A stretch of 64,000 bases of DNA. It comes from Maribellus sp. YY47 (GTDB lineage: Bacteria > Bacteroidota > Bacteroidia > Bacteroidales > Prolixibacteraceae). The position numbers and the translations under genes are program-made. The stretch spans positions 1 to 64,000 of the forward strand of contig NZ_JALGYW010000027.1 of NCBI RefSeq assembly GCF_023111095.1, read 5' to 3'. The notes beneath the pieces were generated by a model that saw only the letters and a program-made list of their open reading frames with translations, had not been told where the DNA came from and did no database searches. Every line of letters starts with the position of its first letter. The stretch's first letter is position 1. This document shows positions 1 to 9,789 of the stretch, in pieces.

Positions 1-228
1 AATTGCTTGTTTGCATGCAAAAATCCGTATTTTCAATTCAAATCGTCACGCTATCAAAAATCGCTACAAGTACGACTAACAAAGAATTTCAAAGAACGTC
101 TATTAATTTTTAATACCCACTAGTGAGATAGTATATAAACTGATATTCATGAAAATCAATAAGATAGTTTTTTAACTTAATTGTATTTTTATTATTTTTA
201 TTGAATTCTTTCAGAAACCTAACTATTT

Positions 229-1929
229 ATGAATGAGACTAATTTACCTCCAGAAAAAGAAAAATCAAAAATTGATTTTTGGAAACGATTAATTCTAACT
301 ATTTCAGTATTTAATGCATGTCTCATTATAGGACATCTTCTATTCGAAATTTTATTTTCGAAAAACTCATCCGTTTTAGCAACTATAGTTGATTACAACT
401 ATCATTCAAGAGAAGTTTGGATAATATCATTTAACATATTTGTATTGCTTTATTTAGTATTTAAATCGATAGAGAAAAATACATTTCCCAATAGAAGTAA
501 GTTTTTAACTGATTTAACTGTCGTTCTATTTGTAATATGGTATTGCTTTAAACGCGGAGGAACACATGAAATTAATGGAGTAAGTTTTTGTCTTGATTCA
601 TATTCCTTTGTTAATATCAAATATCTCGACTTTTTGATATTACTTGGAATATTTAGCATAATACGACTGTCGTCAGATTTTATTTCTAAGTCAAAAAAAA
701 TAGAACATAAGTCAGTCTGGATGAATGATAAGCCATTGGCAAATATTGAGTTTGAGGATTTCGGACGTAAAGAGTTGGTAAATAAAGTTGTAGGCGAAAT
801 TAATTCATTTTCAGACCAAGAAAGTTCATTCACGATTGGAATTGTCGGTCCATGGGGTTCTGGAAAAACTTCTTTCATAAAAATATTGCAGGATAAAGTA
901 AACACTGATCAAAACATTATTATTGATTTTAATCCATGGCAGTATCCTGAAGAGACGAATTTGACTCTTGTATTTTTAAAGGAAATAGAAAAGCATTTAT
1001 GTCGTTACTCTTTTTCTACCAATAGAATCAATGACTATTTAAATCAACTTTTTAAGGGAAATATAAATTGGTGGGGAACCTTAACGAACTTATTTATTAA
1101 GGAGAAAAATATTCGAGATGTACAAGAAAGTATAAAAGAGTCTATACTAGAGGCAAGGAAGAAACTCATTGTTTTTATTGATGACATCGATAGGTTGCAA
1201 GCAAATGAAATTTACGAGGTTCTGACTATAATTCGCAATATTGGGAATTTACCTAACACTATTTTTGTGTTAGGATATGACAAAGATTATTTATTAGATA
1301 TACTTGAAGATAAGATTAAACATCCTCAACGTTATTTATCTAAATTCTTTCAAGTTGAGTTTTCGCTTAGTAAAATAGCAGATCTAAAAGTAAGAGAGGA
1401 ATTGACCAGCAAATTGGAGATATCTTTTCCCGAATTTCAAAAGGATTATGTTGCTAGTTCTAATGAAGAAGAGTTTGAGTCGGCTGATGCCCTCCTGCAG
1501 AGTATTGAAATTGTAAAACTTCTGAAAAATAAGCGAGATGTAATTAAATTAATGAATGTGATTAATACTACTTGGCCAATTTTAAGAGAAGCATTAGTTT
1601 TAAGAATATATTTACAGTTAGAAATATTACGCCTAAAGTACGGAAATATTTATTCGAAGTTGAAATTTAGAGATAAGGACTTTTTATTTGAAAATGAAAG
1701 TGCAAAATTGTATGTTTTTAATACTAATGTAGATTTGGATATAATAATTAAGAATTCCAATGACAGAGATATCATCAGATCAACATTAGAATCGATGTTT
1801 CCAAATAATGGGAGGGAGAGAAATTTAAAGTCAATTCGGCGCGTTGAAAAATTTGACTCTTATTTTCAAAACCAATTGACAACATCTGCATATGAAGAAT
1901 TAGAGGCATTGAGAGGAAATGAAGAATAA
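229..1929 (+). CDS. Membrane-anchored KAP-family P-loop NTPase
   Basis: This 566-residue protein has about four hydrophobic segments near its N-terminus (roughly residues 20-43, 63-81, 92-107 and 132-147), followed by a P-loop NTPase domain. The Walker A motif GPWGSGKTS is at about 207-215, the FNPW motif typical of KAP NTPases lies after it, and the Walker B LIVFIDD is at about 313-319 followed by IDRL. KAP proteins are membrane-linked ATPases of the STAND/AAA-like group; several bacterial members are tied to phage exclusion or mobile elements, but the substrate of this one is unknown. The end of the protein resembles the region just after the NTPase core, and many family members continue further. 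The next gene overlaps by 11 bases in another frame and may be the missing C-terminal part. Base composition is much more AT-rich than in the genes beyond 2820, which suggests transfer. The family call is firm; a defence role is only inferred. Confidence 0.88.
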   Translation: MNETNLPPEKEKSKIDFWKRLILTISVFNACLIIGHLLFEILFSKNSSVLATIVDYNYHSREVWIISFNIFVLLYLVFKSIEKNTFPNRSKFLTDLTVVLFVIWYCFKRGGTHEINGVSFCLDSYSFVNIKYLDFLILLGIFSIIRLSSDFISKSKKIEHKSVWMNDKPLANIEFEDFGRKELVNKVVGEINSFSDQESSFTIGIVGPWGSGKTSFIKILQDKVNTDQNIIIDFNPWQYPEETNLTLVFLKEIEKHLCRYSFSTNRINDYLNQLFKGNINWWGTLTNLFIKEKNIRDVQESIKESILEARKKLIVFIDDIDRLQANEIYEVLTIIRNIGNLPNTIFVLGYDKDYLLDILEDKIKHPQRYLSKFFQVEFSLSKIADLKVREELTSKLEISFPEFQKDYVASSNEEEFESADALLQSIEIVKLLKNKRDVIKLMNVINTTWPILREALVLRIYLQLEILRLKYGNIYSKLKFRDKDFLFENESAKLYVFNTNVDLDIIIKNSNDRDIIRSTLESMFPNNGRERNLKSIRRVEKFDSYFQNQLTTSAYEELEALRGNEE

Positions 1930-2779
1930 TCTTTCGTTTAAAAATAAGGTGAATGATTTGTGGAATACAAATCCTGAGACAAGGGATGACACAATTGGAT
2001 ATTTATTGAGTATAGATAAGTTTCAATCATTCCAAGACTGGAAGAAAATAATTGAAGTCTATTTTGAAATTGATCAATATTTTGTTGAAAAACATTCAGA
2101 TAAGATTATTGATCTTATCCATAAAGGTCAAGATGAATTTTCTACTGAAAAAGTTTCGGGATTCTTAGTTGAGTATTTAAAAGAAGACTCGAAGATTGAA
2201 TTTAATTATTCAAATCTTCTTTACTTACTAAATCAAGAACATAAGAATGCGAATAGAGAATCTCGTAAGACTTTTACAAAGAATGAGTTGGAGGAAATTT
2301 GCAAAAGGAGACTTGAGCGATTTATCAGCAGTCCTATAAAGGACATTGAAAAAGCATTTAACATATTGTATTCGTGCTGGGATTTTGTTGATGACAAAAA
2401 TATTGTTCATTTAACATCTTCCTCTCTTGCGCTAATGAGAAGTTATATTGAGGAATTACCGGAACAATATTTGAATTTTATTATTAGACATCAGTTTTAT
2501 CCTATCAATCCAGACATCTCAGGAGGGAGATATATTTTTGTTCTTGAGCCTTTTACTAAACAGATATTTAAAGGATGGGAGAATTATGAACTCTTTTTAA
2601 AGGAATTGAAAGAGAATTCAACTGTAAATAGAAATACTATTGAATGTAATCAGAAATTCTATGATTTATTTAAGACTAACAAATATGAAAGTGTTCCAAT
2701 TCATAAAGATGATCTAAAATTGTTCAGGCATTGTTCTAAACAAATTGAAGATATATTAAAAGAATCACAAATTAATTAA
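1919..2779 (+). CDS. Hypothetical protein overlapping the KAP NTPase gene (possible split C-terminal half)
   Basis: The 286-residue product is charged and mostly alpha-helical in appearance, with no signal peptide, membrane segment or motif that I recognise. Its ATG lies inside the last codons of the KAP gene (11-base overlap), so translation is probably coupled. There are two readings. It may be a separate partner of the NTPase. Or the two frames may be one protein of about 850 residues split by a frameshift, since long KAP proteins carry a helical C-terminal region and this ORF begins where that would start. Composition is as AT-rich as the upstream gene and the pair ends at a strong terminator, so both belong to the same unit. 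Confidence 0.7.
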   Translation: MKNNLSFKNKVNDLWNTNPETRDDTIGYLLSIDKFQSFQDWKKIIEVYFEIDQYFVEKHSDKIIDLIHKGQDEFSTEKVSGFLVEYLKEDSKIEFNYSNLLYLLNQEHKNANRESRKTFTKNELEEICKRRLERFISSPIKDIEKAFNILYSCWDFVDDKNIVHLTSSSLALMRSYIEELPEQYLNFIIRHQFYPINPDISGGRYIFVLEPFTKQIFKGWENYELFLKELKENSTVNRNTIECNQKFYDLFKTNKYESVPIHKDDLKLFRHCSKQIEDILKESQIN

Positions 2780-2780
2780 T

Positions 2781-2817
2781 AAAAAAACCGTTCTCTTTTT
2801 GAAAAGAACGGTTTTTT
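2781..2817. terminator. Bidirectional intrinsic terminator
   Basis: CCGTTCT (2788-2794) pairs with AGAACGG (2805-2811), flanked by an A-run on the left and a T-run on the right. It can end the KAP unit on the plus strand and the uracil permease gene on the minus strand. It also marks the right edge of the AT-rich patch. Confidence 0.85.
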
Positions 2818-2840
2818 GGGAAGAGAATAAAGTATCGTGT

Positions 2841-4046
2841 TTATTTTTCTTCGTTTGCTGTTTTAGGCAATAACAGGTTCAGGATGATTCCAACTGTAGC
2901 AGCCAAGCCAATTCCAGCCAGTGAAAAATGTCCGTAAGAAATGATTGCGCCACCTATCCCAACAGTAAGAACTACCGAAACAATAACCTGGTTGCGGGTT
3001 TCTCCCATGTCAGCTTTTGAGTCAACCAGTGTTTTGATGCCGATGGAAGCGATCATTCCGAATAATAAGAGCATGATTCCTCCCAAAATAGCCTGTGGTA
3101 TGGTCTCGAGGAAGCCGCTTACTTTTCCGACGAGTGAAAAAACGATGGCGGTAATGGCCGCAATTCTTAATACAAATGGATTGGTTACTTTGGTAAGGGT
3201 AATTGCGCCGGTTACTTCGGAGTAAGTGGTGTTGGGCACACCTCCGAAACAACCTGCAATACCGGTTGCAATACCGTCGCCCAGCAAAGTTCGGTGCAAG
3301 CCGGGTTTTTCAATAAAATTCTTATTGCAAACACCACCAATGGCGTACATGTCGCCCACGTGCTCAATGATCGGTGCAATGGCTACCGGTATCATATAAA
3401 GTATTGCGTGCCAACTGAATTTTGGAGCAGTAAATTCGGGCAACGAAATCCAGGCAGCCTCTTTTATGGCAGTATAATCTACTTTTCCCCAAATGAGCGC
3501 AACAATATAACCCACTGCAATTCCGATAAAAATAGGTATCAACTTGATCATCTTTTTCCCGAAAATTACGACAGTGATAGCGGTGGCCAGTGAAATGATG
3601 GCCAGCACCCAATCGGTTTTTGCCATATCAACGGCAGCCGAAGCGAGAGACAATCCGATGATCATAATTACGGGGCCAACTACAACTGCAGGAAACAATC
3701 GCTCTACAAATTGCAATCCGCGCATTTTGACCAAAGCAGAAACAACAGCGTAAACAATTCCCACTGCAATAATCCCCGATAATGTTCCGGGCCATCCATA
3801 CAATTTGGTGGCTTCAATAATAGGTGCGATGAAAGCAAAACTACTACCCAGGAAAACGGGTACCTGACCCTTGGTAATAAAGTGAAAAATCATCGTACCG
3901 ATACCGGCCGTGAATAGTGCTACTGCCGGATCGATTCCCACCAATAAAGGAACCAAAACGGTAGCGCCAAATGCAACAAACAGGAACTGCACCCCCAGAA
4001 CCGTGTTTTTTAAGGTTAGTTGCTCACGAAAAGTTTTTTCAGTCAT
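2841..4046 (-). CDS. uraA: Uracil/xanthine permease, NCS2 family
   Basis: A 401-residue polytopic membrane protein of the NCS2 nucleobase:cation symporter family, expected to import uracil across the inner membrane. Visible family signatures are the QVPVFLGSSFAF segment near the N-terminal third, EHVGDMYAIG (the conserved acidic transport motif), and the GGVPNTTYSE-type stretch after it. Length matches UraA-type permeases. It is transcribed alone, toward the shared terminator at 2781-2817. The start chosen opens with MTEKTFREQLTLKNTV, the usual short cytoplasmic lead before the first helix. Substrate could be xanthine or another base, but the UraA-like length and motifs favour uracil. Confidence 0.92.
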   Translation of the reverse strand: MTEKTFREQLTLKNTVLGVQFLFVAFGATVLVPLLVGIDPAVALFTAGIGTMIFHFITKGQVPVFLGSSFAFIAPIIEATKLYGWPGTLSGIIAVGIVYAVVSALVKMRGLQFVERLFPAVVVGPVIMIIGLSLASAAVDMAKTDWVLAIISLATAITVVIFGKKMIKLIPIFIGIAVGYIVALIWGKVDYTAIKEAAWISLPEFTAPKFSWHAILYMIPVAIAPIIEHVGDMYAIGGVCNKNFIEKPGLHRTLLGDGIATGIAGCFGGVPNTTYSEVTGAITLTKVTNPFVLRIAAITAIVFSLVGKVSGFLETIPQAILGGIMLLLFGMIASIGIKTLVDSKADMGETRNQVIVSVVLTVGIGGAIISYGHFSLAGIGLAATVGIILNLLLPKTANEEK

Positions 4047-5516: not shown

Positions 5517-8459
5517 TCATTGTTGCAGAATACTGTTGTAAATCGCCTGGTGGATTTCAGTACGGATGTTGAGTTGGTAGAGACGGTTGTTTTCGCGTGT
5601 TGGATAAACCCGGTTTGACATGAATATAAACAGAATTCCGTTTTTGGGATCTGCCCATGCAAAAGTGCCGGTAAATCCTCCGTGCCCATAGCTGCTTTGG
5701 TCAGCCGAAACAGCCGGGAAGGCATCCAGCAGGTCTTTTTTGTAGTTGTTGATCAGGGGTTTGTCGAATCCGAGCCCTCTTCTGTTTCTGCTTTCAGGAA
5801 ATTGAATCCTTGTAAATTCATTTACTGTTTCTTCTGTAATATAACGGCGACCTCCAAAATAACCTTTCTGAAGATACATTTGGAAAAGCTTCGCCAGGTC
5901 GTTTGCAGTGCCAAACAAACCTGCATTTCCCGAAATGCCGTTCATCATTGCAGCCCCTTCGTCATGCGCAAATCCACATATTTTTTCTTTTCGGAAAAGG
6001 TCATCGTTTTCTGTCGGAACAATCTGCTGCATTGGAAAATGTTCGTAGGCGTTGTAAGTAATCGTATAAGCTCCCAACGGCTTGTAAAAGGTATTTTTGA
6101 TATAATTTTCGTAGGATTGGCCTGTCAGTTTTTCTATGATAGAAGGAAAAATAAAAAAGCTAAGTCCTGAGTAGGTGTATTGCTTTCGCGGGAGTAATTT
6201 GGAATTGCGGATAGTGTCCATCATTTGTGTGAGGTAGTTCGGGTTCATGTAAAGCTTTTCCGAAACACGAACGGTGAATTCGTCAGATGGCTCGTGACGA
6301 AACACGTTTGCATCCAGGTTACCCTCCTTGTCAACGGTATTCATCCAGAAGGAAATGTACGGTGCCAGTCGTGCCTGGTGTGCCAGAATATCTCTGATGA
6401 TTAGGTTTTCCTTGTTCGAACCGATAAAGTCGGGCCAGTATTTGCTAAACTTATCGTCTAAGTTGAATTTTTTATCGTCCACAAGTTTCATCAGTGCCGG
6501 GAGTGGCCCGGTAACCTTGGTGAGTGAAGCCCAGTCGTAAACATTGTTTTTTTCTACCGGTAGCTCATTATCGTAGGTCAGGAAGCCAAAGCATTTGTGG
6601 TAGATCACATTTCCATCTTTTGCAACGAGTACCTGGCATCCGGGATAGGCTTTCTCGTCTACACCCATTTGCGCAATGGTATCGATCAGGGCCAGCTTCT
6701 CTGCGCTCATTCCCACTTCTTCGGGTATGGTGTACGAAAATGTTTGATTGCCCTTAAGCGAAATTCCGTCGTTCACCTGGAAGCGTTGATCTACCGAAAC
6801 CGGTAGCTTGCCATTTGCGCCATAAGCTCCAAACACCAGTTGAGCTGATAGTTCCCGCGCAAGATCGGTGCCCTGGTAGGCCAGTATCAATCCTTTTGTG
6901 TGGTGAATATTGGAAAAATGCTTTAGTGCGTAGGCGTTTCCAAAAAACACAATCACCGATCTTTTATCTGCAACCAGATCCTCAGTTGCTTTTTGCTGAA
7001 TGGCGCTTACTCCATAATTTTCTGCCGGATATTTATGAATTCCTTCGATGGCAGTGATTACCAGGCTGTAGTTGGAAAGTTTATTTCGAAGTTGCAGCCA
7101 TTCTTTTTCGCTTGCATTTTTGGGAAGCACAAAATGATCGATTTGTGTGTAGTTATCGAGCATTGTTTGAAAGGCGGTTTTTGAACTGCTACCCAGGCTG
7201 ACAGAAGCTATCTTTTCGTTTTCCAGGTTTTGAACGGGAAGAATTTTCTGGTTGGCTAAAACGGTTAGTGATGCTTTGATCAGTTTTCGCTGAGTTACTC
7301 CAAATTTAGGGGCATTTAGTTTTCTTGTCAGGTCTTTAAGTTCTGCCGGTTGGTATTTCTGTAACCCTGCCCATCTCTTTATGGCCAGAATGGTGCGGCA
7401 TTTTTCTTCGATGGCTGCTTCCGTTATTTCTTTTTTTGAAATCGCCTCTTTTACTGCTGAAATTGCTGTTTCAAGATCGGGAACAAATTCCACCATATCG
7501 TTACCCGCTATCAAAGCTTCCACTTCGGCGCGGCCCGGTTCTGCCCGAACTCCTTTCATGCCGATAGCGTCGGTAACAATGAATCCGCGGTAACCCATTT
7601 CATTTTTTAAGTAGTCGGTAACTACCTTTTTTGACAGCGACGATGTTTTTCCCGATGGATCGAGTGCCGGAACAGAAAGATGGGCGGTCATTATTCCGCT
7701 GATCCCTTTTTTTGAAAGATACCGGAAAGAATAGGATTCGATGGAATCGAGCCTTGCTTTTGAATGCGGAACAAGTGGGAGTGTGACATGCGAATCGGTT
7801 TGGGTATCACCGTGCCCGGGAAAGTGTTTGGCTACCGGAATCACGCCTGCATCCTGCATTCCCTTCGAAACCATCCAGGCTTTTTCGGCCACATTTTGTT
7901 TGTTTTCTCCAAACGACCTAAAGTTGATCACCGGGTTCGAAGGATTGGTGTTGATATCGGCAACGGGTCCAAAATTCATCTGGATACCGAGCAGTTTGAG
8001 TTGTTCGCCAAACTCGCGCCCCATCTGGTAAATGAGAGAAGTATCCTGAATGGCCCCCAAACTTTGTGCATAAGGATATTGAACGGTGCTGTCGATTCGC
8101 ATCGCCGGCCCCCATTCTCCGTCAACAGCTATCAATAGCGGAGTTTCGGAAACTGCCTGAAACTGGTTGATCCATGAAGCTGTTTTAACAGGTGTTCCCT
8201 GCATTACCAAAACACCACCGGGTTTATAGGTGCGTATCTTGTCGATCACGGCTGCTTTGCTCGCTTCGTTCTGCTTGGGGTAAGCCGTAATCATCATTGT
8301 TTGAGCGATTTTCTCATCAAGACTTAGCCGGCTCATCTGTTCATTCACCCACGGATCGTTTTTGAAAACAGAGAAAGGTGGATCGCTGGCATAAATGCCG
8401 GAAGCCAGGAAATTACATAGTAATAACAGCAGAAAGTATTTCTTAGGCGTTGGTTTCAT
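5517..8459 (-). CDS. GH3 beta-N-acetylglucosaminidase (NagZ-like) fused to a serine beta-lactamase-fold domain
   Basis: I take the ATG at 8459 as start (980 residues) because it opens a clean signal peptide (MKPTPKKYFLLLLL); an in-frame ATG 48 bases upstream would bury it. The first half is a glycoside hydrolase family 3 domain with KHFPGHGDT at about 211-219, the NagZ-type acid/base loop D222-S-H224, and the likely nucleophile D297 in VTDAIGM. The second half, from about residue 590, is a serine beta-lactamase/esterase fold: S645-L-T-K648 is the SxxK motif, Y763-S-G stands where YxN/YxD is usual, and H926-G-G is the third motif. In Bacillus the separate NagZ, AmiE and NamZ enzymes work together on cell-wall fragments; here the first two are one polypeptide, and a NamZ-like gene is divergent next door. 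The exported enzyme should release GlcNAc and trim peptides from peptidoglycan pieces in the periplasm. The amidase activity is inferred. Confidence 0.9.
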   Translation of the reverse strand: MKPTPKKYFLLLLLCNFLASGIYASDPPFSVFKNDPWVNEQMSRLSLDEKIAQTMMITAYPKQNEASKAAVIDKIRTYKPGGVLVMQGTPVKTASWINQFQAVSETPLLIAVDGEWGPAMRIDSTVQYPYAQSLGAIQDTSLIYQMGREFGEQLKLLGIQMNFGPVADINTNPSNPVINFRSFGENKQNVAEKAWMVSKGMQDAGVIPVAKHFPGHGDTQTDSHVTLPLVPHSKARLDSIESYSFRYLSKKGISGIMTAHLSVPALDPSGKTSSLSKKVVTDYLKNEMGYRGFIVTDAIGMKGVRAEPGRAEVEALIAGNDMVEFVPDLETAISAVKEAISKKEITEAAIEEKCRTILAIKRWAGLQKYQPAELKDLTRKLNAPKFGVTQRKLIKASLTVLANQKILPVQNLENEKIASVSLGSSSKTAFQTMLDNYTQIDHFVLPKNASEKEWLQLRNKLSNYSLVITAIEGIHKYPAENYGVSAIQQKATEDLVADKRSVIVFFGNAYALKHFSNIHHTKGLILAYQGTDLARELSAQLVFGAYGANGKLPVSVDQRFQVNDGISLKGNQTFSYTIPEEVGMSAEKLALIDTIAQMGVDEKAYPGCQVLVAKDGNVIYHKCFGFLTYDNELPVEKNNVYDWASLTKVTGPLPALMKLVDDKKFNLDDKFSKYWPDFIGSNKENLIIRDILAHQARLAPYISFWMNTVDKEGNLDANVFRHEPSDEFTVRVSEKLYMNPNYLTQMMDTIRNSKLLPRKQYTYSGLSFFIFPSIIEKLTGQSYENYIKNTFYKPLGAYTITYNAYEHFPMQQIVPTENDDLFRKEKICGFAHDEGAAMMNGISGNAGLFGTANDLAKLFQMYLQKGYFGGRRYITEETVNEFTRIQFPESRNRRGLGFDKPLINNYKKDLLDAFPAVSADQSSYGHGGFTGTFAWADPKNGILFIFMSNRVYPTRENNRLYQLNIRTEIHQAIYNSILQQ

Positions 8460-8491
8460 GTAAAAAAGTTTTCTTTTAATCTCATTCGTTG

Positions 8492-8543
8492 AAACCCGCC
8501 CGATCACTTATTGTTTAACTTCTTCCTTATTTAAGGCGGGTTT
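8492..8543. promoter_or_regulatory. Inverted repeat in the divergent control region of the cell-wall-sugar locus
   Basis: AAACCCGCC (8492-8500) and GGCGGGTTT (8535-8543) are a perfect 9-base inverted repeat separated by 34 AT-rich bases, lying between the divergent GH3 fusion gene and the DUF1343 gene. It could be an operator or leader hairpin for one of the genes. The repeat is seen directly; function is a guess. Confidence 0.4.
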
Positions 8544-8619
8544 AATTTTCAAAAGAATGAGAGCTTCGAAAATATTATAAAACTATCTTCGTAACAACAA
8601 ATGTAAAATATTAATAGCG

Positions 8620-9789
8620 ATGTTTCGAATAAATATAAGCCTGATTTTTGTACTTCTTTTTTCACTTTGTTCTGCATCGGGAGCCGAAAAGATTGAAGTA
8701 GGAGCCAATCAGCCGGAAAGTTATCTGGCGACGATGAGCGGGAAGTCGATAGGCTTGGTAGTTAATCACACATCGCGTACGGAAGACGCTCACCTAGTTG
8801 ATTTTCTTTTAGATAAAAAGGTGCATGTCACCAAAATTTTTGCACCGGAACATGGTTTTCGAGGCGATGTGTCGGCTGGAGGGAAAATTGAAGATGGTGT
8901 GGATGTCAAAACCGGCATTCCGGTTCTTTCGTTGTACGGAGAGAACAAAAAACCTACCGCAGATCACATGGAGGGACTGGATTTGATGGTGTTCGATATT
9001 CAGGATGTTGGATGCAGGTTTTATACTTATATTTCTACTTTACACCTGGTGATGGAAGCCTGTGCGGAACACAACGTGCCGCTGCTTATTTTGGATCGCC
9101 CCAATCCAAACGGTGACTATGTGGCCGGTCCGATTCGTAAAGCTGGATTCGAGTCTTTTGTGGGTATGGATCCGATTCCGCTTGTACACGGCTGTACGGT
9201 GGGGGAGTTGGCTCAAATGATCAATGGAGAAGGTTGGCTGGAAAACGGTCAGAAATGCAAGTTGACGGTGATTCCTGTAAAAAATTATAATCACTCGGTG
9301 TTTTATTCGCTTCCGGTTGCTCCGTCTCCCAATTTGCCGAACGATCTTTCGGTGCGTTTATATCCATCGCTGTGTTTTTTTGAAGCAACCAGCGTAAGCG
9401 TCGGACGCGGAACTGATTTTCCGTTTCAGGTATTGGGCGGATTAGAAGCCGGTTTGGGAGATTTTAAGTTCATTCCGCGCAGTATTCCCGGAGTTGCCAT
9501 AAATCCGCTAAATAAGGACAAACATTGTTACGGAGTTGATTTGCGCCAGCTGGAAAACGTGCCTGAATTCACGCTGAAGTTTTTTCTGGATTTTTATAAA
9601 CAATACGAAAACAAAGCCGAGTTTTTAACCAATGAACGTTGGTTTAATCTTTTAGCCGGAACCGATACTTTGATTGAACAGATCAGAAAGGGGATGACCG
9701 AGGAGGAAATTGTAAAGAGTTGGCAGCCCGAGTTGACCGAGTATAAAAACATGCGGGCTAAATACCTGTTGTATCCCGATTTTGAATAA
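8620..9789 (+). CDS. namZ: Exo-beta-N-acetylmuramidase NamZ-like (DUF1343, GH171)
   Basis: A 389-residue exported protein with an N-terminal signal peptide ending near residue 22. The remainder is a full DUF1343 domain, with landmarks GLVVNHTS, FAPEHGFRG, SLYGENKKPT, FDIQDVGCRFYTYISTL, LDRPNPNG and GRGTDFPFQ. DUF1343 members such as Bacillus NamZ (YbbC) and the Tannerella homologue are exo-lytic N-acetylmuramidases that remove MurNAc from the non-reducing end of peptidoglycan glycans. It is divergent from the NagZ/AmiE-like fusion gene, so the pair can strip GlcNAc, peptide and MurNAc in turn. Function is well supported by family; the cell-wall recycling role follows from the neighbour. Confidence 0.88.
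   Translation: MFRINISLIFVLLFSLCSASGAEKIEVGANQPESYLATMSGKSIGLVVNHTSRTEDAHLVDFLLDKKVHVTKIFAPEHGFRGDVSAGGKIEDGVDVKTGIPVLSLYGENKKPTADHMEGLDLMVFDIQDVGCRFYTYISTLHLVMEACAEHNVPLLILDRPNPNGDYVAGPIRKAGFESFVGMDPIPLVHGCTVGELAQMINGEGWLENGQKCKLTVIPVKNYNHSVFYSLPVAPSPNLPNDLSVRLYPSLCFFEATSVSVGRGTDFPFQVLGGLEAGLGDFKFIPRSIPGVAINPLNKDKHCYGVDLRQLENVPEFTLKFFLDFYKQYENKAEFLTNERWFNLLAGTDTLIEQIRKGMTEEEIVKSWQPELTEYKNMRAKYLLYPDFE

What the first reader, a model, noticed from the sequence alone, without database searches (positions are those of the whole stretch)
229..2779. KAP NTPase and its overlapping downstream ORF may be one protein split by a frameshift, or a new two-gene module
ORF1 (566 aa) stops soon after the NTPase core, and ORF2 (286 aa) starts 11 bases earlier in the +1 frame. 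Together they are about 850 residues, a length typical of long KAP proteins whose C-terminus is helical. Either ORF2 is that C-terminus, with a frameshift (mutational or programmed), or it is a distinct effector coupled to the NTPase. KAP proteins are linked to phage exclusion, so a two-component defence unit is conceivable.
Basis: partly seen in the sequence, partly recalled or inferred. Interest (0 to 1): 0.6.

Follow-up and report, generated by a model that had tools for sequence, protein, structure and literature searches.

The report
Phage-defence-like ATPase gene split in two
A bacterial ATPase related to a known phage-exclusion protein is normally one chain, but here it is encoded by two overlapping genes, and a second species keeps the same break with both halves under selection, so it looks like a working natural split and not a sequencing error.

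Summary
ORF1 is a KAP NTPase, nearest among defence models to PifA. ORF2 has no significant family hit alone, yet it is the C-terminal domain of single-chain PifA-like KAPs: collinear with an 850-aa and a partial 701-aa single chain, and found at 6e-24 by a profile of homologues' C-termini built without it (best of 300 shuffles 0.27). In 89 single-chain homologues the extension past ORF1's end has median 290 aa. A second species of the genus (G013) has the same split and overlap; both halves show purifying selection (dN/dS about 0.21 and 0.10). So this is a fixed gene fission, not an error, a decayed gene or a new effector. No good slip site is apparent; two proteins from one transcript by coupled translation is most likely (inferred). 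The cassette is AT-rich (29% vs 43.5% GC), apparently imported into a variable gap between conserved genes. Phage defence by membrane damage is inferred from PifA, not shown. Caveat: the junction lies in a high-identity patch, so recombination may have spread the split.

The parts
229..1929 (+). ORF1, 566 aa: N-terminal hydrophobic segments plus KAP NTPase (N-terminal half of a PifA-like protein)
   Evidence: Pfam KAP_NTPase 1.7e-35; PADLOC PifA 6.2e-43; G013 orthologue 81.5% identical
289..663 (+). three hydrophobic, probably membrane-spanning segments (ORF1 residues 21-39, 60-78, 127-145)
   Evidence: hydropathy scan, (two segments pass in G013)
847..873 (+). Walker A motif GPWGSGKTS (residues 207-215; motif name recalled)
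   Evidence: W209, G210, G212, K213, S215 invariant in 5 sequences
1168..1194 (+). Walker B region IVFIDDIDR (residues 314-322; motif name recalled)
   Evidence: D318, D319, D321, R322 invariant in 5 sequences
1919..1929 (+). 11-nt overlap of the ORF2 start and the ORF1 stop; the fission point
   Evidence: identical in G013; equivalent position is a loop between helices in the model of a single-chain relative
1919..2779 (+). ORF2, 286 aa: C-terminal, mostly helical domain of PifA-like KAP proteins as a separate gene
   Evidence: C-terminus profile built without it hits at 6e-24; collinear with G041 and G068 chains; model mean pLDDT 87.5
2782..2817 (-). terminator-like hairpin between the converging ORF2 and permease gene; listed for the - strand only, a role for both strands is my reading
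   Evidence: one found, 1.0 expected by chance; none was listed between ORF1 and ORF2

Best explanation
The locus encodes one PifA-like KAP NTPase as two polypeptides. An ancestral single-chain gene (N-terminal membrane segments, KAP NTPase, C-terminal helical domain) underwent fission at a domain boundary without loss of sequence. SHOWN by sequence: ORF2 is the C-terminal domain of single-chain relatives; the split is shared by a second species; both halves are under purifying selection. INFERRED: ORF2 is translated from the same transcript by termination-reinitiation at the overlapping start, and binds back to ORF1 non-covalently. INFERRED from PifA and from the RdrA-like fold of the NTPase: the protein assembles at the membrane, the helical domain senses or regulates, and a phage trigger leads to ATP-dependent membrane damage that stops infection.
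For: Collinear single chains G041 (850 aa) and G068 (701 aa, partial). C-terminus profiles of 6, 12, 25 and 50 homologues hit ORF2 at 1.5e-17, 6e-24, 1.5e-18 and 3.4e-15; best shuffle of 300 never below 0.18. 89 single chains extend past ORF1's end by a median of 290 aa. Tail on an ORF of its own only in the window genome and G013 among loci L001-L138, apart from an 86-aa fragment in L134; in 298 relatives 13 have a tail match and no intact stand-alone copy elsewhere was seen. Identical junction in G013; dN/dS 0.21 and 0.10; nonsynonymous deficit p 7.8e-26 and 1.6e-26. The 50-sequence C-terminus profile also hits plasmid PifA 434-707 at 3.2e-18. The break maps to an inter-helix loop. NTPase part closest to RdrA, Z 17.7.
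Against: Only two genomes have the split, and it lies in a patch of 90-96% DNA identity (829-2028) between less similar flanks, so recombination may have spread it and part of the selection seen may predate it. ORF1 codons 481-566, the end next to the break, show no clear constraint (15 nonsynonymous, 7 synonymous, p 0.12). Two separate products, their binding and any defence activity were not tested. The PADLOC PifA model does not match ORF2, and the 12-sequence C-terminus profile does not hit PifA.
Confidence: 0.75

Rival explanations
1. Programmed +1 frameshifting (or slippage of the transcript) joins the two ORFs, so that the functional product is still one chain; the overlap is a recoding site.
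For: Single-chain relatives exist, the overlap is identical in two species, and nothing is lost at the junction.
Against: The shift needed is +1 or -2. The window between the upstream stop of the ORF2 frame (2 codons before its ATG in the window, about 5 in G013; open frames of 288 codons) and the ORF1 stop has no good slip codon or long homopolymer (my reading). ORF2 has its own ATG, conserved in G013.
Confidence: 0.1
2. A shared broken gene (pseudogene): the frame was broken once, spread by recombination, and is decaying.
For: The junction lies in a high-identity patch, and ORF1 codons 481-566 are not clearly constrained (p 0.12).
Against: Both ORFs stay open in both species; ORF2 codons 1-40, inside the patch, have 2 nonsynonymous and 7 synonymous changes (p 1.1e-4), and both whole ORFs show strong constraint.
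Confidence: 0.1
3. ORF2 is a distinct effector recruited beside a KAP NTPase, a new two-gene module.
For: ORF2 alone has no significant hit in Pfam, PADLOC or NCBIfam.
Against: ORF2 matches the C-terminal domain of single-chain KAPs in the right order and place.
Confidence: 0.02
4. Sequencing or assembly error.
For: ORF1 starts 229 bases from a contig end and related proteins are single chains.
Against: The same break is in another species, in a genome of one contig, at about 80-82% protein identity.
Confidence: 0.01

Closest known systems
PifA, phage T7 exclusion protein of F-type plasmids (KAP NTPase)
   Same: KAP NTPase domain (PADLOC PifA 6.2e-43 for ORF1); a C-terminal domain reached by the same 50-sequence profile that finds ORF2 (3.2e-18 for PifA; 3.4e-15 for ORF2)
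   Different: PifA of pLBC3_2 is one 728-aa chain without N-terminal hydrophobic segments; here there are two chains, and ORF1 has such segments. Activity unknown.
Tmn, a KAP-family defence protein with transmembrane domains
   Same: KAP NTPase with membrane segments (passage of PMC11846954)
   Different: No Tmn sequence was compared here; Tmn is described there with two transmembrane domains, ORF1 has three hydrophobic segments, all before the NTPase
RdrA of RADAR
   Same: Nearest solved fold to the NTPase part of a single-chain relative: Z 17.7 over 329 residues, rmsd 4.8
   Different: The match ends near residues 397-411, before the break; no RdrB-like deaminase was recognised by eye in the neighbouring ORFs, which was not a profile search
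QatA of qatABCD
   Same: Weak NTPase similarity (PADLOC 1.2e-13)
   Different: NCBIfam QatA score 55.2 bits against a cut-off of 600

Membership tests
KAP NTPase (Pfam PF07693) | Score above the family's curated cut-off | tested here: met
   ORF1 123.1 bits against 20
KAP NTPase (Pfam PF07693) | Walker A and Walker B residues | tested here: met
   K213 and D318/D319 present and invariant in 5 sequences; motif names recalled
PifA-like | NTPase matches the PifA model better than other defence models | tested here: met
   PifA 145.4 bits, next PDC-S20 60.6 and QatA 48.5
PifA-like | Homologous C-terminal domain | tested here: met
   Through an intermediate profile: the 50-sequence C-terminus profile hits ORF2 at 3.4e-15 and PifA 434-707 at 3.2e-18. 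Against: the PADLOC PifA model gives no hit to ORF2 and the 12-sequence profile none to PifA.
PifA itself (F plasmid) | NTPase and C-terminal domain in one chain | tested here: not met
   Two ORFs in the window and in G013; so not filed as PifA, only as a split relative
PifA itself (F plasmid) | Excludes phage T7 through membrane damage | not testable with these tools
   Needs phage assays; the PifA activity is taken from passages of PMC8594841 and PMC10286901
Tmn | Sequence relation to Tmn | not tested
   No Tmn sequence was fetched
RADAR RdrA | Ring-forming ATPase with RdrB partner | tested here: inconclusive
   Fold similarity of the NTPase part only; no deaminase recognised by eye; upstream neighbours of ORF1 are off the contig
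QatA | NCBIfam equivalog cut-off | tested here: not met
   55.2 bits against 600

The most novel reading that the evidence does not exclude
The fission is adaptive: the helical sensor or regulatory domain has become a separate subunit, made by coupled translation, that can dissociate from or exchange on the membrane-anchored NTPase. This would turn a single-chain phage-exclusion ATPase into a two-component switch whose stoichiometry or trigger range can change.
Probability: 0.12. Interest if true: 0.55.

Novelty: new variant of a known kind. Interest (0 to 1): 0.36.

Why it matters
How PifA and related KAP ATPases work is poorly known; one paper states that the mechanism of the relative Tmn is unexplored (passage of PMC11846954). 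A natural, conserved break marks a tolerated domain boundary: it suggests that the C-terminal domain folds alone and works in trans, so the two halves could be expressed, purified and swapped separately without an engineered cut.

Tried and rejected
Searching ORF2 alone gave little: no significant Pfam, PADLOC or NCBIfam hit, no plasmid or phage match, no confirmed locus in genome contigs, only G013 and G041 besides itself among 199 genomes, nothing but itself among 395 genomes of the phylum. ORF1 alone matched 1012 plasmid records, all under 60% identity and none covering 80% of it, no phage record, 18 IMG/VR loci, and only short weak PDB matches by sequence (best 0.0037, ABC transporters). 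Homology of ORF2 appeared through the single-chain relatives.

Independent splits: the genome-contig scan found 431 relatives of which the best 80 were kept, so the survey is partial. Of the 88 loci L041-L128, 85 chains of 600-1060 aa were used, plus 4 from G genomes (89). Three were dropped for length: L048 (511 aa; frame ends 120 nt before the contig end and holds part of the tail), L087 (316 aa, no tail found) and L096 (stop inside the NTPase, tail in the second piece). None breaks at the place seen here, though L048 cannot be followed past its contig. In one search, G055 matches at a contig start, G626 has stops inside, and G689 runs off its contig.

ORF2's fold: no Foldseek match at E 0.001 or better; the best VIA-align rows are helical repeats at Z 8.1 or less, which may mean only a common arrangement, so no function was read from it. 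Single-sequence comparison of ORF2 with G014, G090, G093 and G046 was weak or insignificant (best 5.5e-4, G014). An all-in-one alignment put ORF1's end at the last column and was discarded; tails were then cut by pairwise coordinates.

Literature: the words PifA and KAP are ambiguous and one search returned mostly unrelated papers. I saw no paper on a split PifA or KAP defence gene in the listings (titles and starts of abstracts only); this does not show that none exists. The 2004 KAP paper was not held.

Full report
OBSERVATION. ORF1 (229-1929, 566 aa) and ORF2 (1919-2779, 286 aa) are present as described, overlapping by 11 nt, ORF2 in the +1 frame. ORF1 has the Pfam KAP domain (1.7e-35, residues 197-448) with intact Walker residues (motif names recalled; invariant in a 5-sequence alignment); its best defence model is PifA (6.2e-43). 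ORF2 alone has no significant family hit.

WHAT ORF2 IS. In genome G041 one 850-aa chain contains both: ORF1 22-562 aligns to 34-580 (8e-50) and ORF2 86-271 to 673-848 (3e-18). The offsets (18 and 587) put the junction at about residues 584-588 of that chain, so nothing was lost. In G068, the closest match to ORF1 after G013 (42-44% identical; 701 aa, N-terminus cut by the contig end), ORF1 aligns to 8-438 and ORF2 to 455-687 at 21% identity, pairwise E 5.6e-10. Scores with G014, G090, G093 and G046 were weak or insignificant, so profiles were used. A profile of 12 homologues' C-termini, without ORF2 or its G013 orthologue, finds the two at 6e-24 and 1.1e-25, the best of 300 shuffled ORF2 sequences scoring 0.27; profiles of 6, 25 and 50 sequences give 1.5e-17, 1.5e-18 and 3.4e-15 for ORF2. 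In 89 single-chain homologues (85 of the 88 loci L041-L128, with chains of 600-1060 aa, plus 4 from G genomes) the extension past ORF1's end is 243-483 aa, median 290, with 86 of 89 between 240 and 350. Among the ORFs of 60 aa or more in loci L001-L138, 87 ORFs carry both head and tail (one place can be held under several locus ids, and some of these sequences built the profiles); 50-odd head-only rows include shorter or more distant KAPs whose tail did not match. The tail is on an ORF of its own only in the window genome and G013, apart from an 86-aa fragment in L134 (2.2e-5 with one profile). A profile search of 298 relatives found the tail in 13 genomes, and no intact ORF2-like gene standing apart from a KAP NTPase was seen outside these two genomes.

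THE SPLIT IS REAL AND KEPT. G013, same genus and a one-contig genome, has a 567-aa and a 283-aa ORF with the identical overlap, 81.5% and 80.5% identical to ORF1 and ORF2. NG86 gives dN 0.115 and dS 0.556 for ORF1, dN 0.105 and dS 1.067 for ORF2. Counting changes, ORF1 has 135 synonymous and 144 nonsynonymous (pN/pS 0.27), ORF2 89 and 68 (0.17): nonsynonymous deficits of p 7.8e-26 and 1.6e-26 under a simple neutral expectation. Against this: DNA identity is 90-96% over 829-2028, 61-67% over 229-678, 83% over 679-828, and 72-81% over 2029-2778 except 2479-2628 (89%). The junction thus sits in a patch that recombination may have spread, and selection outside the patch may partly predate the split. 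Inside it, ORF2 codons 1-40 still show constraint (2 nonsynonymous, 7 synonymous, p 1.1e-4), whereas ORF1 codons 481-566 do not clearly do so (15 and 7, p 0.12).

STRUCTURE. ORF2 with a 16-sequence alignment folds confidently (mean pLDDT 87.5, pTM 0.82) as a mostly helical domain. The natural single chain of L041 (the G068 contig) gives a moderate model (mean pLDDT 74.8, pTM 0.52); the position equivalent to the break falls in the loop between helices 425-434 and 439-451 (placed by the alignment). Its NTPase part is closest among solved structures to RdrA of RADAR (Z 17.7, 329 residues, rmsd 4.8; the next family, archaeal ORC2, Z 13.7), the matches ending near residues 397-411, before the break. 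Whole-model TM-scores to RdrA are low, about 0.3. ORF2 has no informative match.

RELATION TO PifA. The profile of 50 homologues' C-termini hits PifA of plasmid pLBC3_2 (annotated phage T7 exclusion protein) over residues 434-707 at 3.2e-18, against 3.8 for the best of 300 shuffles; the 25-sequence profile gives 3.2e-4 and the 12-sequence one no hit. PADLOC's PifA model matches only the NTPase part of the five single-chain relatives scanned, up to about model position 360 of 720. ORF1 has three hydrophobic N-terminal segments (two pass in G013) that this PifA lacks; 15 of the 20 chains nearest to ORF1 have at least two, the five without being L041 (N-terminus missing), L046, L050, L053 and L054. 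PifA is described as sensing T7 proteins and triggering death by membrane depolarisation (passage of PMC8594841), with gp1.2 and gp10 as the phage determinants (passages of PMC8594841 and PMC10286901). That this locus does the same is inference.

HOW IT LIKELY WORKS. One terminator-like hairpin was listed in 1-3000, at 2782-2817 between ORF2 and the converging permease gene (on the - strand; one is expected by chance), none between the ORFs. The ORF2 start lies inside the last codons of ORF1, so termination-reinitiation coupling is the simplest route to ORF2. A joined product would need a +1 (or -2) shift between the upstream stop of the ORF2 frame (2 codons before its ATG in the window, about 5 in G013, from the open frames) and the ORF1 stop; I see no good slip codon or long homopolymer there. 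I therefore expect two subunits that reassemble; this was not tested.

SETTING. The cassette is AT-rich: 29.0% GC against 43.5% for the rest of the window, below all 118 windows of its size; in G013 29.7% against 41.4% around it. In G013 it lies between a gene that looks like TIGR03915 (name recalled, not tested) and a uracil/xanthine-type permease (named by look). In the window genome the permease gene is downstream, and the other gene ends about 219 nt from the end of contig C51, but the two contig ends share no 11-mer over 400 nt, so their adjacency is unproven. In 18 other genus genomes taken the same two genes are 87 to 8,825 bp apart. G032 and G004, whose permease is nearest to the window's (95%), have only weak ORF1 matches (3.3e-6 and 1.2e-5) and other genes in the gap. 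In G013 the last 36-41 codons of the upstream gene recur after the cassette. This points to horizontal gain into a variable gap.

VERDICT. A conserved natural fission of a PifA-like KAP NTPase: unusual as an arrangement, ordinary as a family. The organism was not looked up; kinship to Prolixibacteraceae is suggested by the record title of L041, which has the length of the G068 contig, a same-family genome.

Noticed in passing
L034 6523-6693 and 9505-9675 (G013): The 3' end of the gene upstream of the cassette (about 36-41 codons) is repeated after the cassette, as if the insertion duplicated or replaced the gene's end.
   Followed up: partly
L146-L163, gap between the TIGR03915-like gene and the permease: The same gap varies from 87 to 8,825 bp in 18 genus genomes, and seven of them hold a similar 411-aa ORF there; a site of variable gene content, not evidently one for defence genes.
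   Followed up: partly
window 5517-9789: A 996-aa ORF that looks like a GH3 N-acetylhexosaminidase fused to a serine hydrolase, next to a divergent DUF1343/NamZ-like ORF; perhaps cell-wall recycling. Named by look only.
   Followed up: no
L035 4741-14911 (G041): The single-chain relative lies between a DUF262-like gene and two large genes that look like restriction or defence genes; labels by look, not tested.
   Followed up: no
L048 4553-6088; L096 1374-3554: Two other KAP relatives with interrupted frames: one ends near a contig end with part of the tail, one has a stop inside the NTPase.
   Followed up: partly
window 450-905 (-): A 151-aa open frame antisense to ORF1, also present in G013 (L034 7044-7499); probably a by-product of the conserved coding strand.
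   Followed up: no
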